From the NCBI GenBank assembly GCA_944322615.1, contig CALUPH010000002.1:62001-126000 (forward strand): DNA of 64,000 nucleotides. The letters are read 5' to 3'. Source of the DNA: Candidatus Gastranaerophilales bacterium (lineage in GTDB: Bacteria > Cyanobacteriota > Vampirovibrionia > Gastranaerophilales > Gastranaerophilaceae). Of the stretch, positions 20,530 to 29,991 are shown piece after piece. Position numbers and translations under genes: made by a program. The first letter of the stretch is position 1, and the number at the start of each line of letters is the position of its first letter. Under the pieces are notes generated by a model. It was not told where the DNA came from. It ran no database searches and saw nothing but the letters and a program-made list of their open reading frames with translations.

Positions 20530-22191
20530 TTATCTTATTCTAACATCGCATTTAGCATATAATTTGCCATCCGACTCTTGAAAATGCTTCTTAAATAATT
20601 CTTGCAACGTATATCCTGTATATTCTGAATAATCCTTGAATTCCTTTATTCTTGAGTTTTGTGATTTATTAAAATATTTTTCTACATTTGCTATTTTATA
20701 ATGTTGCTCAGGATCTATAGGTTTACCGGTTTGGGTAATAATTACATATTTTGCCAACTCATTAATATCAGTATTTTGTTCATATTTTTCTAACATAGAA
20801 GTTCTATCAATAATAAGTCCTGAATAATGAATCAATGGGTTCTGCTGTGGCATATCTTTATTAAACAAAAAATTATCAAGAATCATATATAAAATATCAT
20901 GTCCACTTAGCTCTGTAGTCAATATCTTTGCTTCTTCTTCTTTTATTCCGGATAAAACGCTCATAACATCAAGAAAAGAGTTTTTAGGTTTCTTTGAAAC
21001 ATTTAAAGGATGCCTTATTGAAGATGAATTTAATGCAAAAAAGTCAATAGAACCATCTTTTTTCTTTAACTCTTCAAGTATTGTATCCGTAATAAAATTA
21101 GCAAGAAAACTATTACCTTGTCTAACATCTTTTATGTCCAATTGCTGAACATTTTCCTTATCTGTTCTGATAGAATATTTATTTTTTGTATCTTTTGCAA
21201 ATAATTTTCTATATAGTTTTAATAAAGGTCCCTTTGTCTTATTTTCTAAAGGTGAAAAAGATTTTAGCCCAATATCTGCTAAATTTCCTTCATCATCAAC
21301 TTTCATCTTTGCATTCACTATCTTTTTGAAATTTTGCGACAAAGGAACAATAGGAGTACCATTAACTACTCTAATAGGATCCTTGTGTTCGTGACCGTCA
21401 AAAACCAAATCAACCTCTGATTCTCGAGCTAATGTATCAGCAAATTTTACTCCGGTATGACTCATTAATATAACATGCCCTTTCGGATTTTGCTTTTTAA
21501 ATTCTGAAATCCGACCCTTACAATACTCTAATGTTTTTTCATAATCTTCCTTTGTAACGTATCTTTGCGGTTTTGGAATAGCATCAATTAAACTTACACC
21601 ATCTAATTTTTTTTGATACGCAGGCATATTAACAGGACTTATACCTAAAAATAAAAATTTATGTTTTAATTCCGGATTTTTATCATCTTCAACTGCAACT
21701 ATTTTTTCATTAATGATTTTATTACCACTTATACTTTTCTGAAAACCGTCTGAAGAAGATATATCTAAATTTGAAAATAAAACTTCAGCATCTAAATTTG
21801 CCAAAACATCATCTAAAAGTTTAACCCCACCGTCAAATTCATGATTTCCAGGCGTAAATAAAGTCATTGTATTTGATGCAATACCTTTAATTTGTCTGAT
21901 AAATTCATTAAAAATATCGAGCTGAAATCTTGCCACTTCTTTACCGGGATTAGTTATATATCCCTTTCTTGCTCCGTCCATAAACCAATCACCACATACT
22001 GCAATGACGTTAGCACTTGCTTTATCATCACTCTTACAGAAAATATCAACTTTTCTGCTACGCATTTCTTCTAATGCATTATTTGCACATAATAATTCAC
22101 CATGAGTATCAGAAAATGCATTTATATTAAGCATTGCACCCTTAAATGAATTATTTTGATAAAAATTACTATATGATGGTTGAATTTTCAT
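20530..22191 (-). CDS. metallophosphoesterase / 5'-nucleotidase-like protein with N-terminal FKG signature
   Basis: The core is a UshA-type calcineurin-like phosphoesterase: NAFSDTHGELL (near 23, D-x-H), AVCGDWFMDG (near 70), TPGNHEFDGG (near 112), ILMSHTGVKFAD (near 242) and FDGHEHKDP (near 263) supply the metal ligands. The C-terminal half (about 335-553) resembles the 5'-nucleotidase substrate domain (NSSSIRHPLN, HYSGLIIDR). Family members are normally periplasmic with a Sec signal; here the N-terminus is MKIQPSYSNFYQNNSFKG with no hydrophobic segment, the signature shared with several neighbours. Length 553 aa is normal. There is no Shine-Dalgarno; TATTAT ends 6 nt upstream of the ATG. 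Confidence 0.85.
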   Translation of the reverse strand: MKIQPSYSNFYQNNSFKGAMLNINAFSDTHGELLCANNALEEMRSRKVDIFCKSDDKASANVIAVCGDWFMDGARKGYITNPGKEVARFQLDIFNEFIRQIKGIASNTMTLFTPGNHEFDGGVKLLDDVLANLDAEVLFSNLDISSSDGFQKSISGNKIINEKIVAVEDDKNPELKHKFLFLGISPVNMPAYQKKLDGVSLIDAIPKPQRYVTKEDYEKTLEYCKGRISEFKKQNPKGHVILMSHTGVKFADTLARESEVDLVFDGHEHKDPIRVVNGTPIVPLSQNFKKIVNAKMKVDDEGNLADIGLKSFSPLENKTKGPLLKLYRKLFAKDTKNKYSIRTDKENVQQLDIKDVRQGNSFLANFITDTILEELKKKDGSIDFFALNSSSIRHPLNVSKKPKNSFLDVMSVLSGIKEEEAKILTTELSGHDILYMILDNFLFNKDMPQQNPLIHYSGLIIDRTSMLEKYEQNTDINELAKYVIITQTGKPIDPEQHYKIANVEKYFNKSQNSRIKEFKDYSEYTGYTLQELFKKHFQESDGKLYAKCDVRIR

Positions 22192-22197
22192 AAATTA

Positions 22198-22203
22198 ATA
22201 ATA
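22198..22203 (-). promoter_or_regulatory. -10 hexamer TATTAT before the metallophosphoesterase gene
   Basis: On the minus strand TATTAT ends 6 nt before the ATG at 22191 with no ribosome site between. It is a weaker example of the leaderless geometry, without a recognisable -35. Confidence 0.4.
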
Positions 22204-22418
22204 CTTGTAAAAGAAAAATTTTGTTTTAAAAAAAATTGATATTAAGATTTGTAACATCGAATTTTTTAGGATGAGAGCTTACTCTCATAAGAAGAATTTG
22301 GATTTAAGTATATAACAGACCAAAAAGCATGTTTTTTTCTGTTATAATCAAAACTCTAAATAGCAAATTTTATTTTTTTGAGATTTAGAACAGATGTACG
22401 AGAGTATGGATGGATAAT

Positions 22419-23396
22419 ATGAAAATCAATTCTATTACAACAACTACGGGATATCTGAAAGGCAGGGCAACAGAGCACTTGCTGAGCCAAGGAAGAGAGT
22501 GTGAAAAAGAGCGACATAATTTAAAACAAAATAATAATGACCAAATAAACACGACCATCGAGAGTAATTCTGATGGTCGTGTGAGTTTTAAGGGCGGTAC
22601 ACCATTTCTTCATAAAGCAGCAAATTTCGCATCAGATAATCCACTAGTAGCCGAAGCATTATTTGCAATACTTATTACTTGCGGTTTAAGACCATTAACA
22701 ATTATGGCAACAGCAAAAACAGAAGAAGACAAAGAAAAATGCTCCTACCAAGCAGCAAAATCAGTTTCAACAGGGCTTGTAGGACTTGCAACTTCAGTTC
22801 TTGTAGGTATTCCTATTGCAGCAGCAGCAAAAGCAGCTCAAAAAAGAGGTGCCTTTAACATGCCGGAAGAAATGAAGAAAAAATCAATGGAAGTAGTTAA
22901 ACAAGGTGCGGAAAGTTTAACCAAACTTGCAGAAAAGTTTACAACAGAAGGAAAACATTCTGAACTTGTAGAACAAATAAAAGGTTTAACAGCTCCAATG
23001 GCAGAAAAAGGATCTATGAATCTTGATATATTTAAAAAAGCAGGTAAAGGTGCAGAAAAAATATTTAAAGAAAAAATAGACAATGTTGCACCTGAAATAT
23101 CAGAATCAGTAAGAAATGCAATTAGTGAGCAAAAAACTATAGACAATTTTGCAAGAACAGGAAAAAATGTTATAGACAAATTATTCCAACCAATATTTAT
23201 GCCAATTAGAGCAACAATAACAGTAGCATTGGTTCCAACCATACTTGCAGCACTTGGACTAAAGAAGGCAGGTAGCAAAAAACCTGAAGAAAAGATAACT
23301 CCATATGATTATCTAAGCTACAATGTTTTCACAACAAGTGATGATAAAAAGATTTTCCAAGCGTTTTCGGGGGTAACCAATTATGAGAATAAATAG
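22419..23396 (+). CDS. unknown protein with FKG signature and hydrophobic helices
   Basis: The family is not recognised. The first residues MKINSITTTTG match the style of the neighbours (MRINSI, MKIQPS), followed by an Asn/Glu-rich linker and VSFKGGTP near residue 55. Residues about 60-150 hold two or three hydrophobic helices (PLVAEALFAILITCGLRPL, GLVGLATSVLVGIPIAAAA), suggesting membrane association. The middle is charged and helical, and another hydrophobic segment lies near 265-285. I chose the ATG at 22419 because the signature then begins at once; an in-frame ATG at 22410 adds MDN. It overlaps the next gene by 14 nt, so the two are co-expressed and perhaps partner proteins. Confidence 0.7.
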   Translation: MKINSITTTTGYLKGRATEHLLSQGRECEKERHNLKQNNNDQINTTIESNSDGRVSFKGGTPFLHKAANFASDNPLVAEALFAILITCGLRPLTIMATAKTEEDKEKCSYQAAKSVSTGLVGLATSVLVGIPIAAAAKAAQKRGAFNMPEEMKKKSMEVVKQGAESLTKLAEKFTTEGKHSELVEQIKGLTAPMAEKGSMNLDIFKKAGKGAEKIFKEKIDNVAPEISESVRNAISEQKTIDNFARTGKNVIDKLFQPIFMPIRATITVALVPTILAALGLKKAGSKKPEEKITPYDYLSYNVFTTSDDKKIFQAFSGVTNYENK

Positions 23397-24273
23397 TATT
23401 AACAATACATATCAATACAAATCAAACAAGAACAACTCATACAATAATCCGAAAGCACAATCATTCAAAGGAGCCCCTACCGCAATAACAGAACCCCTTT
23501 CTAACTTTTATGAAAAAGTTGCCTCTAAAGGCGGTTTCCAAAAATTTATTTCAAAATTTAGTAAAACAAACTCCTTTACTCATTTAATGGTTGCTGAAAG
23601 TTGTTTCTTATCAGGATTTTATATGATAAATACTTTAAGAAACAAAAAAATAAAGAAAGAGCAAAAGCCTCAAATGATTATAAATGATGCATTAACATTG
23701 GGTGTATCAACAGCAGGGGCATATTTACTTGATGATAAAGTAACACAAGTAGTTGATAATCTTTCTAATAGTTACTTCACCAAAAATCAAGACTTTTACA
23801 TCAATAAAGCAAAAGAATCTGCAAAAAATCTGGCACAAAAAACAGGCATACTGGATGACATCTTTAATGCAGCAAAAGAAGCTTCTGATGATGGTATTGG
23901 TGCAGTTACAAAGAAAATAGGTGAACAATTAAGCGGAATTGTTGCAAAAGGTGATAAAACAAAAGCTTTCCAAATTTCTGCAGATAAACTAAAAGAAGTT
24001 CAGGAAGGTGTATCTAATGTTATTAAAGCAAACAAAGGTAATATGGAAGGTGCAAAGAAAGCTGCTACAGGTTTAATTGATGATGTTTATGATAAATTAG
24101 CCGGAAAAGTTGAAGCTGATAAGATAATTCCTGGTATAAACAAAATTAAAACTCTTGTAATATTCGGTATTATTTACAGATACTTAGGACCTGTTGTTGT
24201 AACACCTATTGCAAATAAATTAAGTTCTAAATTTTTCTCTAACAAGAAAGATAACGAAGCAAAAAAAGCATAA
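23383..24273 (+). CDS. unknown protein with FKG signature, paired with upstream gene
   Basis: The family is not recognised. The N-terminus MRINSINNTYQYKSNKNNS leads through an Asn-rich linker to QSFKGAPT near residue 28. A hydrophobic segment follows (HLMVAESCFLSGFYMI, about 66-81), then a second (ALTLGVSTAGAYLL, about 102-115), a helical charged centre, and a third near 250-275 (TLVIFGIIYRYLGPVVVTPI). The layout mirrors the upstream gene, with N-terminal signature, two hydrophobic segments, charged helices and a C-terminal hydrophobic segment, so the two may be distant paralogues forming a membrane complex. A strong terminator follows at 24303. Confidence 0.7.
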   Translation: MRINSINNTYQYKSNKNNSYNNPKAQSFKGAPTAITEPLSNFYEKVASKGGFQKFISKFSKTNSFTHLMVAESCFLSGFYMINTLRNKKIKKEQKPQMIINDALTLGVSTAGAYLLDDKVTQVVDNLSNSYFTKNQDFYINKAKESAKNLAQKTGILDDIFNAAKEASDDGIGAVTKKIGEQLSGIVAKGDKTKAFQISADKLKEVQEGVSNVIKANKGNMEGAKKAATGLIDDVYDKLAGKVEADKIIPGINKIKTLVIFGIIYRYLGPVVVTPIANKLSSKFFSNKKDNEAKKA

Positions 24274-24302
24274 ACTAATTAAGAATATGCATAATTTATA
24301 AA

Positions 24303-24337
24303 AAAGAATCTGTTTAATACAGATTCTTTTTGTTTTC
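24303..24337 (+). terminator. rho-independent terminator
   Basis: Ten-base stem AAAGAATCTG / CAGATTCTTT with a 7-nt loop followed by a T-rich tail. It ends the two-gene FKG unit 22419-24273. Confidence 0.85.
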
Positions 24338-24472
24338 AATTGACTTTTCATAATTCAACATTAAATATGAACAAAGGTAAGAATAACTGCATATAAACAA
24401 ATAATCTAAAGTTATTTTTTCTAAAATTTCATATCGTTTGATTAACATAACTTTACATATTATTTTTTTCAC

Positions 24473-24500
24473 TAAAGTTAATTTTTAATCCAGCCGATAA
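24473..24500 (+). promoter_or_regulatory. sigma-28 (FliA)-like promoter
   Basis: TAAAGTTA (24473-24480), a 12-nt spacer, then GCCGATAA (24493-24500). The enterobacterial sigma-28 consensus is TAAAGTTT-N11-GCCGATAA, so the -10 is perfect, the -35 is 7 of 8 and the spacer one base longer. It lies 35 bp upstream of the start of the next gene. A second CTAAAGTTA occurs at 24406 without a matching -10. Confidence 0.7.
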
Positions 24501-24535
24501 ATGAAATAGGATAACAAATAACAATGGAGAAAAAA

Positions 24536-25504
24536 ATGGGCTTAGCAGCTTCACAGGCAAGATTTTTAGGTATAACAGCAAGAAAATCAAATATAGAATA
24601 TGAAGGTCAACAAGTAAACCAACAACGTACAGCCTTAGCTGAAGAAGTTAATGCTTTATATAGTAAATTGCTTTCACTAAGTGTACCTGTTGCACCTGAT
24701 ACAACAGAATTCTATGAATCAAACTATAGCTTTACTATTTCAGATAAAACTAATAATCAAGATGGTGAATATATAGTTAAGAATTATTATGAAAACGATG
24801 ACGGTTCTTATTATATGGACGTAGAACGTACATATGATAAAAATATGGCTGAACAAAGTGACTTGTCTAACCAATGGAAAATTGTTAAATCTGATGATGG
24901 CACTTATAGTTTAGTTAATATAAAAGATGAAACAAGTTATGCACTAAGCTTATCAAGCGATCCAACCGAAATAAAAAGCTTAATAGATTCAACTGCCGGT
25001 ATTCAACCACTACCTGAAGGAACACAAAATTTATACACATATAAAGATAGTGATGGAAAAACACACTATATTCCTGATGTTCAAGTAACAGGATATGATC
25101 TAAATGCAGAACAAAATCAAATATATTCTTATATGAAAACAAACAAAACAGTTACAGAAACAACAACCTTCGACAAAGTACAAGTTACTTTTGACGGTAA
25201 CAACAGAATGAGTTCTGTTACTATACCGGGTGTTGTTACAGGCTTGGATGTAGATACTACAAGAACATATGATTCTGAAGGTTATGATGCTGCATTAAGA
25301 GATTACACAATGAGCAAAGATGAATATGACAAAATGGTTGCAGACTTAAATGCTCAAACAGAATCTTTACAACAAGAAGATAAAGTTCTTGAATTAAGAT
25401 TAAATCAAATCGATACAGAACAAAACGAATTGCAAACAGAATTAGAAGCTGTAAAAGCAGTATTAGATAAAAACATAGAAAATACATTCAACACATTCTC
25501 ATAG
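24536..25504 (+). CDS. unknown protein (MGLAASQARF family), sigma-28-like promoter
   Basis: I recall this N-terminus (MGLAASQARFLGITARKS) as recurring in Gastranaerophilales proteins but know of no assigned function. An amphipathic N-terminal helix of about 45 residues is followed by a beta-rich middle (YSFTISDKT, DGSYYMDVERTYD) and a Glu/Gln-rich coiled coil of about 60 residues ending NIENTFNTF. Helical ends around a beta-rich centre recall the layout of flagellar axial and type III-exported proteins, though no homology is evident. I chose the ATG at 24536, which has GGAG 7 nt upstream; the ATG at 24524 adds MEKK. No signal peptide. Cysteine-free, as in many exported filament proteins. Confidence 0.75.
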   Translation: MGLAASQARFLGITARKSNIEYEGQQVNQQRTALAEEVNALYSKLLSLSVPVAPDTTEFYESNYSFTISDKTNNQDGEYIVKNYYENDDGSYYMDVERTYDKNMAEQSDLSNQWKIVKSDDGTYSLVNIKDETSYALSLSSDPTEIKSLIDSTAGIQPLPEGTQNLYTYKDSDGKTHYIPDVQVTGYDLNAEQNQIYSYMKTNKTVTETTTFDKVQVTFDGNNRMSSVTIPGVVTGLDVDTTRTYDSEGYDAALRDYTMSKDEYDKMVADLNAQTESLQQEDKVLELRLNQIDTEQNELQTELEAVKAVLDKNIENTFNTFS

Positions 25505-25563
25505 ATTGAATGTATAAGTAAATAAGCAGCAAACACAAATAAACACATTGAGGAATGTAGGAA

Positions 25564-26370
25564 ATGAGTTACAAAAACGATAGTTATTTAGTTATATCAA
25601 ATAAATATGGGACCTTAAGTGGCGACGCAAAAGCAATGTTATTTGAAACTTATGACCTTTTAAGAGATATAACAGTCAGCGGAAGTGCTTCTGATGGTGC
25701 GGGTTTTGGTACAGCCGGAAGCTTCTTGTGGAAAATCGCAAGTATGATTGCCCCAAGCTCATTTATGTCTACAATGGGTGGCGGAACCGCAATTAATATA
25801 CCTGGGACCTCCTATTGGTCTCCAACCAATTCTACAACAGGAACTACATCTGCTTTTGGAATCGGCTCATTATCTCAATACTCAGGATTTACAGGTGGCG
25901 CAAGTCCAGTTGTACAAGGTTTTGGAACTTCTGGTGAAGTAGGCTACTTAACAGGTGGTGCTTCTTCTTTAACTTCAGTTTCTGAAATCGCAAATTCTGC
26001 AGGAGTAAATGCTCTTGGTTATACCGCAGGTTTAGCTTCAGGTTTTGGTTTTGGTGATAGTTTCTTATTACCTGCTGCCGGTGTTGTTTCAGGATTTGGC
26101 GGTATTTTACAAGCAATGTCTCCTTATTTAGGTGAATTTGGACTTGGTACTACATTAATTGGTAATTTATTACAAGGTACAGCAAGTGCTCCACTAGCTG
26201 CATATCAAAAAGTAACAAGCAGTATTTTAAGTAATGCTGATACTATTCTTCAAAACAAAGTTAAAAATATTGAAACTGTTTGTAAAATGTTAGATGCTCA
26301 AAATGATGTTGTTAAGAAAATGTTGAAAGATGATATTGAAGGTATGAGTGATAAAATTCAAAATATGTAG
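25564..26370 (+). CDS. unknown Gly/Ser/Ala-rich protein, 268 aa
   Basis: No family recognised. The first 40 residues are ordinary (ISNKYGTLSGDAKAMLFET). Residues about 40-215 are strikingly rich in Gly, Ser, Thr, Ala and Phe with repeated GFG, GGAS and SGFG elements, unlike any other protein in the window, and the DNA is less AT-rich there. The last 50 residues form a charged amphipathic helix (QNKVKNIETVCKMLDAQNDV). It lies 59 nt after the MGLAASQ gene, GAGG precedes the ATG by about 9 nt, and a terminator follows, so the two genes are likely one sigma-28-type unit. A secreted or surface role is possible but unproven. Confidence 0.72.
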   Translation: MSYKNDSYLVISNKYGTLSGDAKAMLFETYDLLRDITVSGSASDGAGFGTAGSFLWKIASMIAPSSFMSTMGGGTAINIPGTSYWSPTNSTTGTTSAFGIGSLSQYSGFTGGASPVVQGFGTSGEVGYLTGGASSLTSVSEIANSAGVNALGYTAGLASGFGFGDSFLLPAAGVVSGFGGILQAMSPYLGEFGLGTTLIGNLLQGTASAPLAAYQKVTSSILSNADTILQNKVKNIETVCKMLDAQNDVVKKMLKDDIEGMSDKIQNM

Positions 26371-26402
26371 TTATATTTTCCTTTCCTTATACATACACAA
26401 CC

Positions 26403-26428
26403 GAACCCTCTTCCGAGGGTTCTTTTTT
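26403..26428 (+). terminator. rho-independent terminator
   Basis: Stem GAACCCTC / GAGGGTTC with a TTCC loop and TTTTTT tail, 33 bp after the Gly-rich gene. The T-run is only on the plus strand side. Confidence 0.9.
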
Positions 26429-27983
26429 AATTATTATAATCAAACTTAGACTTTCCTATTTTAATCAATATAAAATCACCGCAATCCTTAATTGAACCAT
26501 TAATTGGATATATAGTCATTCCTAAAGACAGATTCTTTATATATTCAACAAAATCATTATAATCTTGTTCATTATTAATTTCTACCATATCTTTATATGC
26601 TTTTACTTCATAACCTTGCTCTTTCATAAAAGCATATGGTCTATTAACGCATATTTCGGCTTCAAAAGAATCATATCTATCCCAATTAAAAATACTGACA
26701 TTTATTTCTGGGGCTTCAATATAATAATTTCTATTTAATTTTGGATTATCTTTAACCCCAATTATAAGTAATGGCTTATCACCTAACTTCAAAACTTCTT
26801 GATAAAGAGAATATGCAAACATCCTATCATTTTGAAACTTTAAATATTCTGTATAAAATATTCTGTTAAGTTCTTGTATCAACGAGAAAACAACATAGAA
26901 TATTACCACTATACAAATCTTTCTCAATATTTCATTTTTTTTGCATATTTTATATAAAAGAACAAACGATATAGCACAAAAAATATTATATGGAGAATAA
27001 ACTCTATAATAAAAGTCATAATTTCCTGTTGATAAAAAAGGGAGTATTGGCAATAGAAAAACCGCTATACTAATAAAAATCAGATTTCTTTTTTTCTTTA
27101 TTGAATAAACTATCATTATAACAAAAAAAATAAGGCAAGAAATTACGATTACTTGCGATGCTATGTCATATTTGCAAGTTTCTATAAAATTATTTATAAA
27201 CTTTAACATTATATTCTCAAAAGATGTTATAAAAGAATTTAAAGAAGAAAAATCATATTTCATTAATTCATATATTCTTTCTTCTCTATTAAAATTAAAA
27301 ATTTTTCTTAAGGATAATAGAAAACACCAATTAATAAATGCTGTTAAAAAAAACAACAACAATGAAGATAATAATTCTGGATAAACTTTACTTTTATCTT
27401 CATTAACTATTATCTTTAATATAGATATTGTAAAGATAATCATCAAAAAGTATATAAGTCCTGTTTCATAAAATGAAATACTAAAAATCAAAAGTATAAT
27501 TGTATTTATATACTTTCTATAATTATTAGATTGTTCCTTATTATAAAAACTATAAACAGATATAATACTGAGTAAAAAAGATAAAGCATACTCTACATTT
27601 GTATCCATAAAACAATATATAAACCCTATATAGGGGAAAGATAACATTATACAAGAAAATATTATTGAAGCTCTTTCACAAAAAATCTGTGGAAATTTTT
27701 CAGAAAATAACTTAGAGCATAAATTTATAGAAATCATGTATATAAGAACAAAGAAAAATTCTCTCACAAATGGAATATATTCATACGCCATTAATAATTT
27801 TCTTGTCAAAAACAAACCCAATCTATTTACACCAAGTAGTACATAAAAATTAGACCAAGTCCCAAGTATTTCATCATCTACTCCCATAGAAGAATGAGTT
27901 AAAGCAAATCCATAAGAGAGTATAGCTGTTAATATTAATAAAAACCAATAATAAAAACTATTTTTTAACAGTTTTTCTAGCAT
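26427..27983 (-). CDS. polytopic membrane protein, GtrC-like glucosyltransferase (Glucos_trans_II-like)
   Basis: About 518 aa with roughly ten membrane helices in the first 380 residues and a soluble C-terminal part. The first loop carries THSSMGVDDEI, an Asp-Asp element after helix 1 as in GT-C type glycosyltransferases, and the general layout fits the Glucos_trans_II/GtrC group that adds glucose to O-antigen from a lipid carrier. I chose the ATG at 27983, 4 nt after TGAGGA; an upstream ATG at 28016 has no ribosome site. It is convergent with the Gly-rich gene and 55 nt downstream of the GH77-like gene. No GtrA or GtrB partner is adjacent. The family call is from layout and one motif only. 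Confidence 0.6.
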   Translation of the reverse strand: MLEKLLKNSFYYWFLLILTAILSYGFALTHSSMGVDDEILGTWSNFYVLLGVNRLGLFLTRKLLMAYEYIPFVREFFFVLIYMISINLCSKLFSEKFPQIFCERASIIFSCIMLSFPYIGFIYCFMDTNVEYALSFLLSIISVYSFYNKEQSNNYRKYINTIILLIFSISFYETGLIYFLMIIFTISILKIIVNEDKSKVYPELLSSLLLFFLTAFINWCFLLSLRKIFNFNREERIYELMKYDFSSLNSFITSFENIMLKFINNFIETCKYDIASQVIVISCLIFFVIMIVYSIKKKRNLIFISIAVFLLPILPFLSTGNYDFYYRVYSPYNIFCAISFVLLYKICKKNEILRKICIVVIFYVVFSLIQELNRIFYTEYLKFQNDRMFAYSLYQEVLKLGDKPLLIIGVKDNPKLNRNYYIEAPEINVSIFNWDRYDSFEAEICVNRPYAFMKEQGYEVKAYKDMVEINNEQDYNDFVEYIKNLSLGMTIYPINGSIKDCGDFILIKIGKSKFDYNN

Positions 27984-28038
27984 AAAATCCTCACAATTAT
28001 AGCTAAATATTATCAAACAGCTGAAATTAAATCAAATA

Positions 28039-29991
28039 TTAAAGAACTCTTTCTAATTTGCCAGTTTTAAATGCATTATTAGCTTCTTCTTCTGTCATTG
28101 GGCCATTACTTCTTAAAATTTCTGCAGCTTTATTACATTTTTCTATTAATTGACTATCATCTATATTTCTCATACTCAAAGCATTAGAAAGTACTTTGGG
28201 CATATTTAAACCATATCCTTTTGAAAGCTGTGTATAATAAAATCTTTCATAATCGCTTGGAATTCTGACGGTCCAATTATCTTTATCTGATTTTCCAGAT
28301 ATATTTATTCGTTCAGACATACCAAACATATCAGGCAAGGTAAAAAACTGTTTTGCAGATGTAAATATTTCTGCAAATTTAGCAGTTCTAAAATCTTCTT
28401 CGGCTTTTTGCGCTTCTGTTTGTTTTTTATACTCTTTTGCTGAATATTTTAACTTGTTCTCATCTATATTATAATCTCTATGCATTCCATCAAGATGAAG
28501 TTTTCTTTTGCCTGTGTCTTTCGATAAATTAACAAGTGAATCATTATCGTGACACCCGACACCTACATAAAATTTACCATTTTGATAACCTTTTTCTAAA
28601 AACTTTGCAGGTGTCTCGTCATACTCTGCATATGCAGTTGTATATAAATGAGGATATGTATTAAGCGTCATTTCTCTACTCTTACCTGCAGAAATTCCTA
28701 CAAGTTCCAACATTATATTATTCGGATTATTTTCATCAAATTTATCCCCTAACGCATTTTTTGCTGCCGCTTTCATTATGTTAAAAATCGTGAAATTAAT
28801 TTCCGGCAATTTAACTTCTTCATAATTTCCATTAACAGCTTGATATATAAATGGTGTAACAAATTGCCATGCCGCATCCATTCTTATACCATCATATCTT
28901 TTGAAAAATTCTGTATATTTATCATATAAAAATTTACCTACTTCTCCTAATTTAGATAAATCACCATCATCTGTGCATTCACCCAACTTCGTATAATCTA
29001 ATGCCGGAAGCCCCCAAGTTTGAATACAGTTTGTTTCAGGACAACCGGGATCTGGTCCGCCATAATACAAATTTTCTCTAAAACAATCTATATTAGCCCA
29101 CATCTCACCTTGAGAAAATCCAATTAAGCAATCTCCATATAATTTTATATTTTCAGAATTCAAGAAAATTCTGCTCTCTTTCTGTTGCTTTGATGCTATA
29201 AATTGCTTAAAATTCTCAAAACCAATAACTTCTTGGTACTGACTTTTTAATTCTGCAATTCTATTTTGTCGAACAGAATCAGGAATTTCCGAACTATATA
29301 ACATTCTGTCCGTTTCACTCCATTGAGATATGTCAGAAGTCCCATAATGAACTATTAATGCTTCATAAAGAGCATTTTTATCTAGCCAAGAAGAATTCTC
29401 TTTTTGGAAGCTCATAAATTCATTGTATAAACTTACCGCTTCAGGTTTTTCTGCTTCAAATGCTACTTTATAATTTTCATATGCTTTCTTTAATAGTTTT
29501 TCTTGTATTCCATCTTCTTTTTTAGAACCAAGTACATATTCATAATCGGTCTTATATTCCCTTGTAATTTTATCTCGAGGATATTCTTCTGCTGCTTTTT
29601 TTATATCATCCGATGAAAGAATATTTGCATATTCCTTTTTTGTAAGCTTCTTTAAATCTATAATATGATCACCAAATGCATAATTTGTGCCTGAATAAGG
29701 GGAAGCATTGTTTTGGGTAATTTTACCTTGTGGCTGCAGTTGAATTGATGTTATGCCGGTCATTGACTTTAAAAAAGACATAAAATTTTTCAAAGAATCT
29801 GAAAATGTTGTACCTATACCTGTATTATATCCTTTTTCTGATGGTGTATTAAAATCAAAAACAATTGCGGTTGTATCTTGTATTTGTAAAGCGTCTTTTG
29901 CCTCATTGATTAATTCAACATATGCTTTCTTTTCTTCCGTAGTAAAAGCTCTTCCAAAATTTTGATTTGGTATTATCGGATTTATACGCAT
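28039..29991 (-). CDS. GH77-like 4-alpha-glucanotransferase, divergent, with N-terminal signature
   Basis: Conserved GH77 elements can be placed in order: ASPYSGTNYAFGDHIIDL (near 95), LYGDCLIGFSQGEMWA (near 287), IQTWGLPALDY (near 335), YDGIRMDAAW with the nucleophile Asp (near 372), LELVG with the likely acid/base Glu (near 428), and GCHDNDSLVNL (near 488). Classical enzymes (amylomaltase, MalQ) move glucan chains between maltodextrins. Here the motifs deviate from textbook forms (RMDAAW rather than RIDH), and a lysine-rich insert separates the first two. The N-terminus MRINPIIPNQNFGRAF is the lineage signature, not a GH77 feature. The Shine-Dalgarno is AGAGGA. Family confidence is good; activity is less certain. 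Confidence 0.8.
   Translation of the reverse strand: MRINPIIPNQNFGRAFTTEEKKAYVELINEAKDALQIQDTTAIVFDFNTPSEKGYNTGIGTTFSDSLKNFMSFLKSMTGITSIQLQPQGKITQNNASPYSGTNYAFGDHIIDLKKLTKKEYANILSSDDIKKAAEEYPRDKITREYKTDYEYVLGSKKEDGIQEKLLKKAYENYKVAFEAEKPEAVSLYNEFMSFQKENSSWLDKNALYEALIVHYGTSDISQWSETDRMLYSSEIPDSVRQNRIAELKSQYQEVIGFENFKQFIASKQQKESRIFLNSENIKLYGDCLIGFSQGEMWANIDCFRENLYYGGPDPGCPETNCIQTWGLPALDYTKLGECTDDGDLSKLGEVGKFLYDKYTEFFKRYDGIRMDAAWQFVTPFIYQAVNGNYEEVKLPEINFTIFNIMKAAAKNALGDKFDENNPNNIMLELVGISAGKSREMTLNTYPHLYTTAYAEYDETPAKFLEKGYQNGKFYVGVGCHDNDSLVNLSKDTGKRKLHLDGMHRDYNIDENKLKYSAKEYKKQTEAQKAEEDFRTAKFAEIFTSAKQFFTLPDMFGMSERINISGKSDKDNWTVRIPSDYERFYYTQLSKGYGLNMPKVLSNALSMRNIDDSQLIEKCNKAAEILRSNGPMTEEEANNAFKTGKLERVL

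What the first reader, a model, noticed from the sequence alone, without database searches (positions are those of the whole stretch)
24473..26370. Sigma-28-type promoter drives two unknown proteins with export-like architecture
TAAAGTTA-N12-GCCGATAA is nearly the textbook FliA promoter and lies 35 bp before a gene whose product begins MGLAASQARFLGITARKS, has a beta-rich middle and ends in a long coiled coil. A Gly/Ser/Phe-rich partner gene and a terminator follow. Helical termini around a beta middle and absence of cysteine are traits of flagellar axial and type III-exported proteins. No flagellar gene is nearby. This may be an undescribed surface structure or effector pair under flagellar-type control.
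Basis: partly seen in the sequence, partly recalled or inferred. Interest (0 to 1): 0.72.

Follow-up and report, generated by a model that had tools for sequence, protein, structure and literature searches.

The report
Export-like protein pair under sigma-28
In a gut relative of cyanobacteria that has lost its flagellin, a promoter of the kind that normally switches on flagellar filament genes still drives two unknown proteins, the first built like a flagellin without being related to it, and related genomes place these genes next to a second, flagellum-like export machine, which suggests an undescribed surface structure or secretion system.

Summary
A sigma-28-type promoter (24473-24500) precedes a two-gene unit (24536-25504, 25564-26370) closed by a terminator. 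The window lies in a Candidatus Gastranaerophilales genome. A site at the same place, -60 to -67 from the start codon, precedes 20 of 21 orthologues in the genus (TAAAG and CGAT invariant; 2 of 10,500 shuffles). The genome has a FliA-family sigma factor. The first protein belongs to a family, unmatched in Pfam or NCBIfam, found in 131 of 131 genomes of its order and 0 of 161 others sampled from the phylum. Its terminal helices are 87-94% conserved and its beta middle 34-48%, as in flagellins, but no sequence kinship to flagellin was found. Flagellated relatives carry two sets of FliF/FlhA/FliP/FlhB. The window's genus keeps only the second, divergent set and has no flagellin in 21 of 23 genomes. 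In at least 29 genomes of the same family the window-type genes lie within 15 kb of flhA2. Best reading: a sigma-28-controlled pair exported by this second apparatus, the first protein an axial or surface subunit. Regulation is near certain; export is inferred; assembly into a filament is speculative. Earlier papers read these partial sets as decaying flagella.

The parts
24301..24331 (.). terminator-like hairpin that separates the unit from the upstream genes (22410-24273)
   Evidence: 13-pair stem plus T-run
24473..24500 (+). sigma-28-type promoter TAAAGTTA-N12-GCCGATAA
   Evidence: 1 mismatch to TAAAGTTT-N12-GCCGATAA; conserved at -60..-67 in 20 of 21 genus orthologues
24526..24529 (+). ribosome-binding site GGAG for the ATG at 24536
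   Evidence: sequence; orthologues begin at MGLAASQ
24536..25504 (+). gene 1, 322 aa: family with conserved terminal helices and variable beta middle; proposed exported axial or surface subunit
   Evidence: no Pfam or NCBIfam family
25564..26370 (+). gene 2, 268 aa Gly/Ser-rich partner, conserved next to gene 1; function unknown
   Evidence: 79-99% identity in 18 genus orthologues; found beside gene 1 in other families too
26403..26422 (.). bidirectional intrinsic terminator closing the unit
   Evidence: 8-pair stem, 5 GC pairs, T-run

Best explanation
The unit is a sigma-28 (FliA-type) transcribed pair. Protein 1 is a substrate of a second, divergent, flagellum-related type III export apparatus (rod proteins FlgB/C/F/G-like, FliE, FliF, FliG-like, FliH, FlhA2, FliI, FliO/P/Q/R, FlhB2) that all Gastranaerophilales examined carry and that is the only such apparatus left in this genus. 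Shown: the promoter sequence and its conservation, a FliA-family sigma factor, the two apparatus sets, loss of flagellin, gene neighbourhood in related genera, helix-beta-helix architecture (predicted) with conserved ends. Inferred: that protein 1 leaves the cell through this apparatus; that its terminal helices make the axial contacts and its variable middle faces outward, as in a flagellin. Not known: whether it forms a filament, a tip or a free secreted product, and what the Gly-rich partner does; my guess for the partner is a co-exported cap or junction protein, at low confidence.
For: Site conserved 20/21 at a fixed distance, TAAAG and CGAT invariant, 2/10,500 shuffles. FliA_WhiG sigma over its cut-off. 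Two FlhA/FliP/FliF/FlhB sets in flagellated families; only the divergent set in the genus, one copy of FliF and one full-length FlhA2 per genome as a rule. No flagellin in 21 of 23 genus genomes. Set-2 genes identified in the own genome; FlhA1/FlhA2 clades separate at 100/100. Gene order [gene 1]-[gene 2]-[90 aa]-[108 aa]-...-fliE2-fliF2-fliG2-fliH2-flhA2 read in five genomes of other genera, and a family hit within 15 kb of flhA2 in at least 29 genomes (rows). Ends 94% and 87% identical, middle 34-48%. AlphaFold2 pLDDT 88. Top Foldseek hits, though not significant, are flagellin filaments. No Sec signal or membrane helix suggested by hydropathy.
Against: No export, surface location or filament was measured. 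No sequence kinship to flagellin or rod proteins by profile comparison; Foldseek best E 9e-3, probability 0.38, TM 0.18. In the window's own genome the pair is not beside the export locus. In several other genera the site is missing and a sigma-70-like TTGACTTT...TATTATAA stands there. The same-class family f8 has an FlhA2-like protein but no detected member of this protein family, so the apparatus does not always need it. Two genus genomes gave a flagellin hit (G003; G016, 9% contaminated).
Confidence: 0.57

Rival explanations
1. Protein 1 is a late flagellar protein (hook-associated, cap or adaptor class) of the ancestral flagellum, kept for a while after the filament was lost; the apparatus is a decaying flagellum.
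For: Sigma-28 promoters also precede family members in flagellated genera, some perfect 16/16 (L196, L209). Papers read the partial sets as reduced flagella (PMC3787301, PMC4040986).
Against: Flagellated relatives have two gate and ring sets, and the retained one is a separate clade, not the canonical set. The family and FlhA2 are kept intact across nearly all genomes of the order, with many copies in genera that lack canonical FlhA.
Confidence: 0.17
2. Protein 1 is a secreted but non-assembling surface protein or adhesin: the conserved ends are an export signal and chaperone-binding coil, the variable middle a binding domain.
For: Variable beta middle, multi-copy family with different middles, neighbourhood with export genes.
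Against: Members of about 96-105 aa consist of little more than the two helical ends, which fits structural subunits better than binding proteins.
Confidence: 0.15
3. Protein 1 is a cytoplasmic or envelope coiled-coil protein unrelated to export, and the shared promoter and neighbourhood reflect only co-regulation.
For: No direct export evidence; no sequence match to known substrates.
Against: Neighbourhood with fliE2-flhA2 in at least 29 genomes and a hypervariable middle between fixed helical ends.
Confidence: 0.11

Closest known systems
Flagellin (PF00669) and other flagellar axial proteins
   Same: Helical ends strongly conserved, beta-rich variable middle, cysteine-free in this copy, sigma-28-type promoter, paralogues
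   Different: No sequence match by Pfam, NCBIfam or profile comparison; terminal motif MGLAASQARFL...VIDKNIEnTFKTF is its own; shortest members lack a middle; a Gly-rich partner follows
Reduced flagellar gene sets of Melainabacteria (MEL.A1; Soo 2014 genomes)
   Same: Same lineage; the 13 shared flagellum-related genes listed by Di Rienzi 2013 (two flgG, flgC, fliF, fliH, two flhA, fliI, flgE, fliP, fliQ, fliR, flhB) match most of the retained set described here
   Different: Those papers treat it as an incomplete flagellum; here it is a second set, distinct in sequence from the canonical one that flagellated relatives also carry, with its own candidate substrate family
Buchnera basal bodies without filament
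   Same: Flagellum-type export machine kept without a motility filament (PMC8109811, abstract)
   Different: An endosymbiont; no such substrate family or second set is mentioned in that abstract
Non-flagellar type III secretion systems (injectisomes)
   Same: Export gate homologous to the flagellar one, without motility filament
   Different: FlhA2 scores 592 bits against the SctV cut-off 692 and 683 against the FlhA cut-off 772; flagellar-type rod proteins, FliE and FliF are present

Membership tests
Sigma-28 (FliA) promoter | TAAA -35 and GCCGATAA -10 boxes at proper spacing | tested here: met
   15 of 16 positions, spacer 12 against the usual 11
Sigma-28 (FliA) promoter | conserved upstream of orthologues | tested here: met
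   20 of 21 genus orthologues with 13 or more of 16
Sigma-28 (FliA) promoter | FliA-type sigma factor in the genome | tested here: met
   245.9 bits against cut-off 189.6; a second, divergent sigma gene lies after flhB2
Sigma-28 (FliA) promoter | transcription start and sigma dependence | not testable with these tools
   needs 5' end mapping
Flagellin | Flagellin_N/C sequence domains | tested here: not met
   no Pfam match; hhalign E 0.41 and 0.37
Flagellin | terminal helices around a variable beta middle | tested here: met
   AlphaFold2 model, identity profile
Flagellin | fold match to solved flagellins | tested here: inconclusive
   flagellin filaments rank first but E 9e-3, TM 0.18
Flagellin | exported and polymerised | not testable with these tools
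   needs experiment
Flagellum (apparatus in this genus) | export gate, ATPase, MS ring and rod genes | tested here: met
   FlgB/C/F/G-like, FliE, FliF, FliH, FlhA2, FliI, FliO/P/Q/R, FlhB2
Flagellum (apparatus in this genus) | FlhA equivalog score (TIGR01398) | tested here: not met
   683 bits, cut-off 772.1; canonical FlhA1 of G032 872.6
Flagellum (apparatus in this genus) | flagellin filament | tested here: not met
   no PF00669 match in 21 of 23 genus genomes, the own genome included
Flagellum (apparatus in this genus) | hook, cap, L and P rings, stator, C ring | not tested
Injectisome (NF-T3SS) | SctV equivalog score | tested here: not met
   591.9 bits, cut-off 692.25
Injectisome (NF-T3SS) | secretin and needle | not tested
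   not searched

The most novel reading that the evidence does not exclude
Gastranaerophilales carry, beside or instead of the flagellum, a second flagellum-derived export machine that builds a surface filament or appendage from a non-flagellin family of helix-beta-helix subunits with hypervariable middles, and sigma-28 has been kept in flagellin-less lineages to control it.
Probability: 0.33. Interest if true: 0.86.

Novelty: new variant of a known kind. Interest (0 to 1): 0.73.

Why it matters
The partial flagellar gene sets of gut Melainabacteria have been read as flagella being lost. If they are instead a second, working export apparatus with its own large substrate family, a widespread and almost uncultured group of animal-gut bacteria has an unrecognised way to place variable proteins outside the cell, and the evolution of type III export gains a branch that is neither a canonical flagellum nor an injectisome.

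Tried and rejected
Pfam, NCBIfam and PDB sequence searches of both proteins and profiles gave only coiled-coil noise. Profile-profile comparison with flagellins of the order and with set-2 rod proteins found nothing. AlphaFold2 of the partner was uninformative (pLDDT 38). The genome-wide pattern TAAA-N14/17-CCGATA is no more frequent than its reversed control, so loose matching cannot define the regulon; only the near-perfect sites and orthologue conservation carry weight. The ORF-listing start at 24524 was rejected for 24536. The idea that the remaining flagellar genes are one decayed flagellum was rejected as the leading reading because flagellated relatives have two sets. No Rfam family in 22000-28100. 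Papers linking Gastranaerophilales or Vampirovibrionia to a type III secretion system were not found in the held library.

Full report
WHAT IS THERE. The unit begins with TAAAGTTA-N12-GCCGATAA at 24473-24500, is bounded by a hairpin terminator upstream at 24301-24331 and a bidirectional one at 26403-26422, and holds two genes: 24536-25504 (322 aa, GGAG ribosome-binding site at 24526) and 25564-26370 (268 aa). The stretch TAAAGTT-N13-GCCGATAA is unique in the window and absent from 100 shuffles.

IS THE PROMOTER REAL. The own genome (1.96 Mb, 29 contigs, window = C2:62001-126000) has a FliA_WhiG sigma factor at 245.9 bits against a cut-off of 189.6. It has two perfect TAAAGTTT-N12-GCCGATAA sites elsewhere and the window site with one mismatch. 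Allowing up to three mismatches, or with a loose pattern, counts do not exceed the reversed control, so the motif alone is weak evidence at that level. The strong test is conservation: 20 of 21 orthologues in the genus have 13 or more of 16 matches, spacer 11 or 12, beginning 60-67 bases before the start codon; TAAAG and CGAT are invariant in all 21 while the spacers differ freely; 2 of 10,500 shuffled upstream regions reach this. Members in other families also carry it, and L196, L197 and L209 (other genera) have 16 of 16. In named GTDB genomes 47 of 101 family genes with a readable upstream region have it. Several genera instead show a sigma-70-like TTGACTTT...TATTATAA at the pair, so the control is lineage-specific.

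WHAT THE PROTEINS ARE. Neither protein has a Pfam or NCBIfam family. Protein 1 belongs to a family defined by its ends: an N-terminal MGLAASQARFL...R.S..E..GQQ.NQ and a C-terminal D..LE..L...dTq...vqTE.eavKkviDKNIE.tFKtF. Members run from about 96 aa, nearly all ends, to more than 500 aa. Within the genus, residues 1-46 are 94% and 247-322 are 87% identical, the middle 34-48%. AlphaFold2 (pLDDT 88) gives helix 2-46, a beta middle and helix 247-321. Foldseek finds no significant match; flagellin filaments lead the list (E 9e-3, probability 0.38). Profile comparison shows no kinship to flagellins or rod proteins. The partner is 79-99% identical within the genus and follows gene 1 in other families too; its model is uninformative.

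WHERE THE FAMILY OCCURS. The organism is a Candidatus Gastranaerophilales gut bacterium (nearest named genomes). The family is in all 131 sampled genomes of the order and none of 161 others in the phylum, including five of the same class.

THE SECOND EXPORT APPARATUS. Flagellated families of the order carry two sets of FlhA, FliP, FliF and FlhB; the window's genus keeps only the divergent set and 21 of 23 genomes lack any Flagellin_N match. Canonical FlhA1 of G032 scores 872.6 in TIGR01398 (cut-off 772.1), FlhA2 690.5 in the same genome and 683 in the own genome. In a tree the two FlhA groups separate at 100/100, and the FlhA of a sister family of the class joins the FlhA2 side, on a long branch. 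In the own genome set 2 comprises FlgF/G-, FlgB- and FlgC-like rod proteins, a transglycosylase, FliE, FliF, a FliG-like protein, FliH, FlhA2 and FliI in one locus (L085), FliO-P-Q-R in another (L158) and FlhB2 in a third (L007).

THE LINK. In five genomes of other genera read in full, gene 1, gene 2, a 90-aa and a 108-110-aa gene lie on the same strand a few kilobases before fliE2-fliF2-fliG2-fliH2-flhA2; the rows place a family hit within 15 kb of flhA2 in at least 29 genomes. In G013 the orthologue lies next to a stand-alone FlhA C-domain gene; in flagella the FlhA C-domain docks chaperoned filament-type substrates (PMC8166844, abstract).

HOW IT PROBABLY WORKS. A sigma-28-type factor transcribes the pair; protein 1 is exported through FlhA2/FlhB2/FliPQR2 and the rod, and its helical ends pack while the variable middle faces out. 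The first step is well supported, export is inferred from neighbourhood and architecture, assembly is a guess. Which sigma factor reads the site is open: FliA (C11), or the divergent sigma gene that follows flhB2 in the own genome and in 9 of 10 flhB2 neighbourhoods read in relatives.

AGAINST WHAT IS KNOWN. Di Rienzi 2013 (PMC3787301) and Soo 2014 (PMC4040986) describe incomplete flagellar gene sets in this lineage and explain them by gene loss. The two-set finding, the substrate-like family and the conserved sigma-28 control were not found described in the held library; subscription literature was not searchable.

Noticed in passing
L007:1171-1830 (G000:C3), also L303, L305-L312: A ~220-aa divergent sigma-70-family gene directly follows flhB2 in the own genome and in 9 of 10 flhB2 neighbourhoods read in relatives; a dedicated sigma factor for the second export set is possible.
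   Followed up: partly
L090:16402-17868 (G000:C2:156.4-157.9 kb): A stand-alone protein with a FlhA C-terminal domain (FHIPEP 321-652, 171 bits) and no membrane part occurs in nearly all genomes of the order; shorter fragments of the domain occur at G000:C5 and C8.
   Followed up: partly
L091:6221-8449 and L093:10571-11101 (own genome): The two perfect TAAAGTTT-N12-GCCGATAA sites of the genome precede a 742-aa protein with SLT and EF-hand domains and a 176-aa protein of unknown family.
   Followed up: partly
L204-L218, L274, L276, L293, L298: In several genera the sigma-28 site of the pair is replaced by a sigma-70-like TTGACTTT...TATTATAA at the same place, a possible promoter swap.
   Followed up: partly
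L014:1480-2112 (G000:C19); L163, L189, L192, L201, L214-L218: In other families and genera a ~90-aa basic and a 108-113-aa helical gene follow the pair; in the window's genome their likely homologues sit alone on another contig.
   Followed up: no
window 22410-24273: Two genes for proteins with an SFKG motif lie just upstream, separated by a terminator; at least one genus relative (L160) keeps the same order. Similar motifs recur in other proteins of this genome.
   Followed up: no
G003:C32:21421-21831, G016:C5:301-453: Two genus genomes give a Flagellin_N match although they lack canonical FlhA; G016 is 9% contaminated, G003 is unexplained.
   Followed up: no
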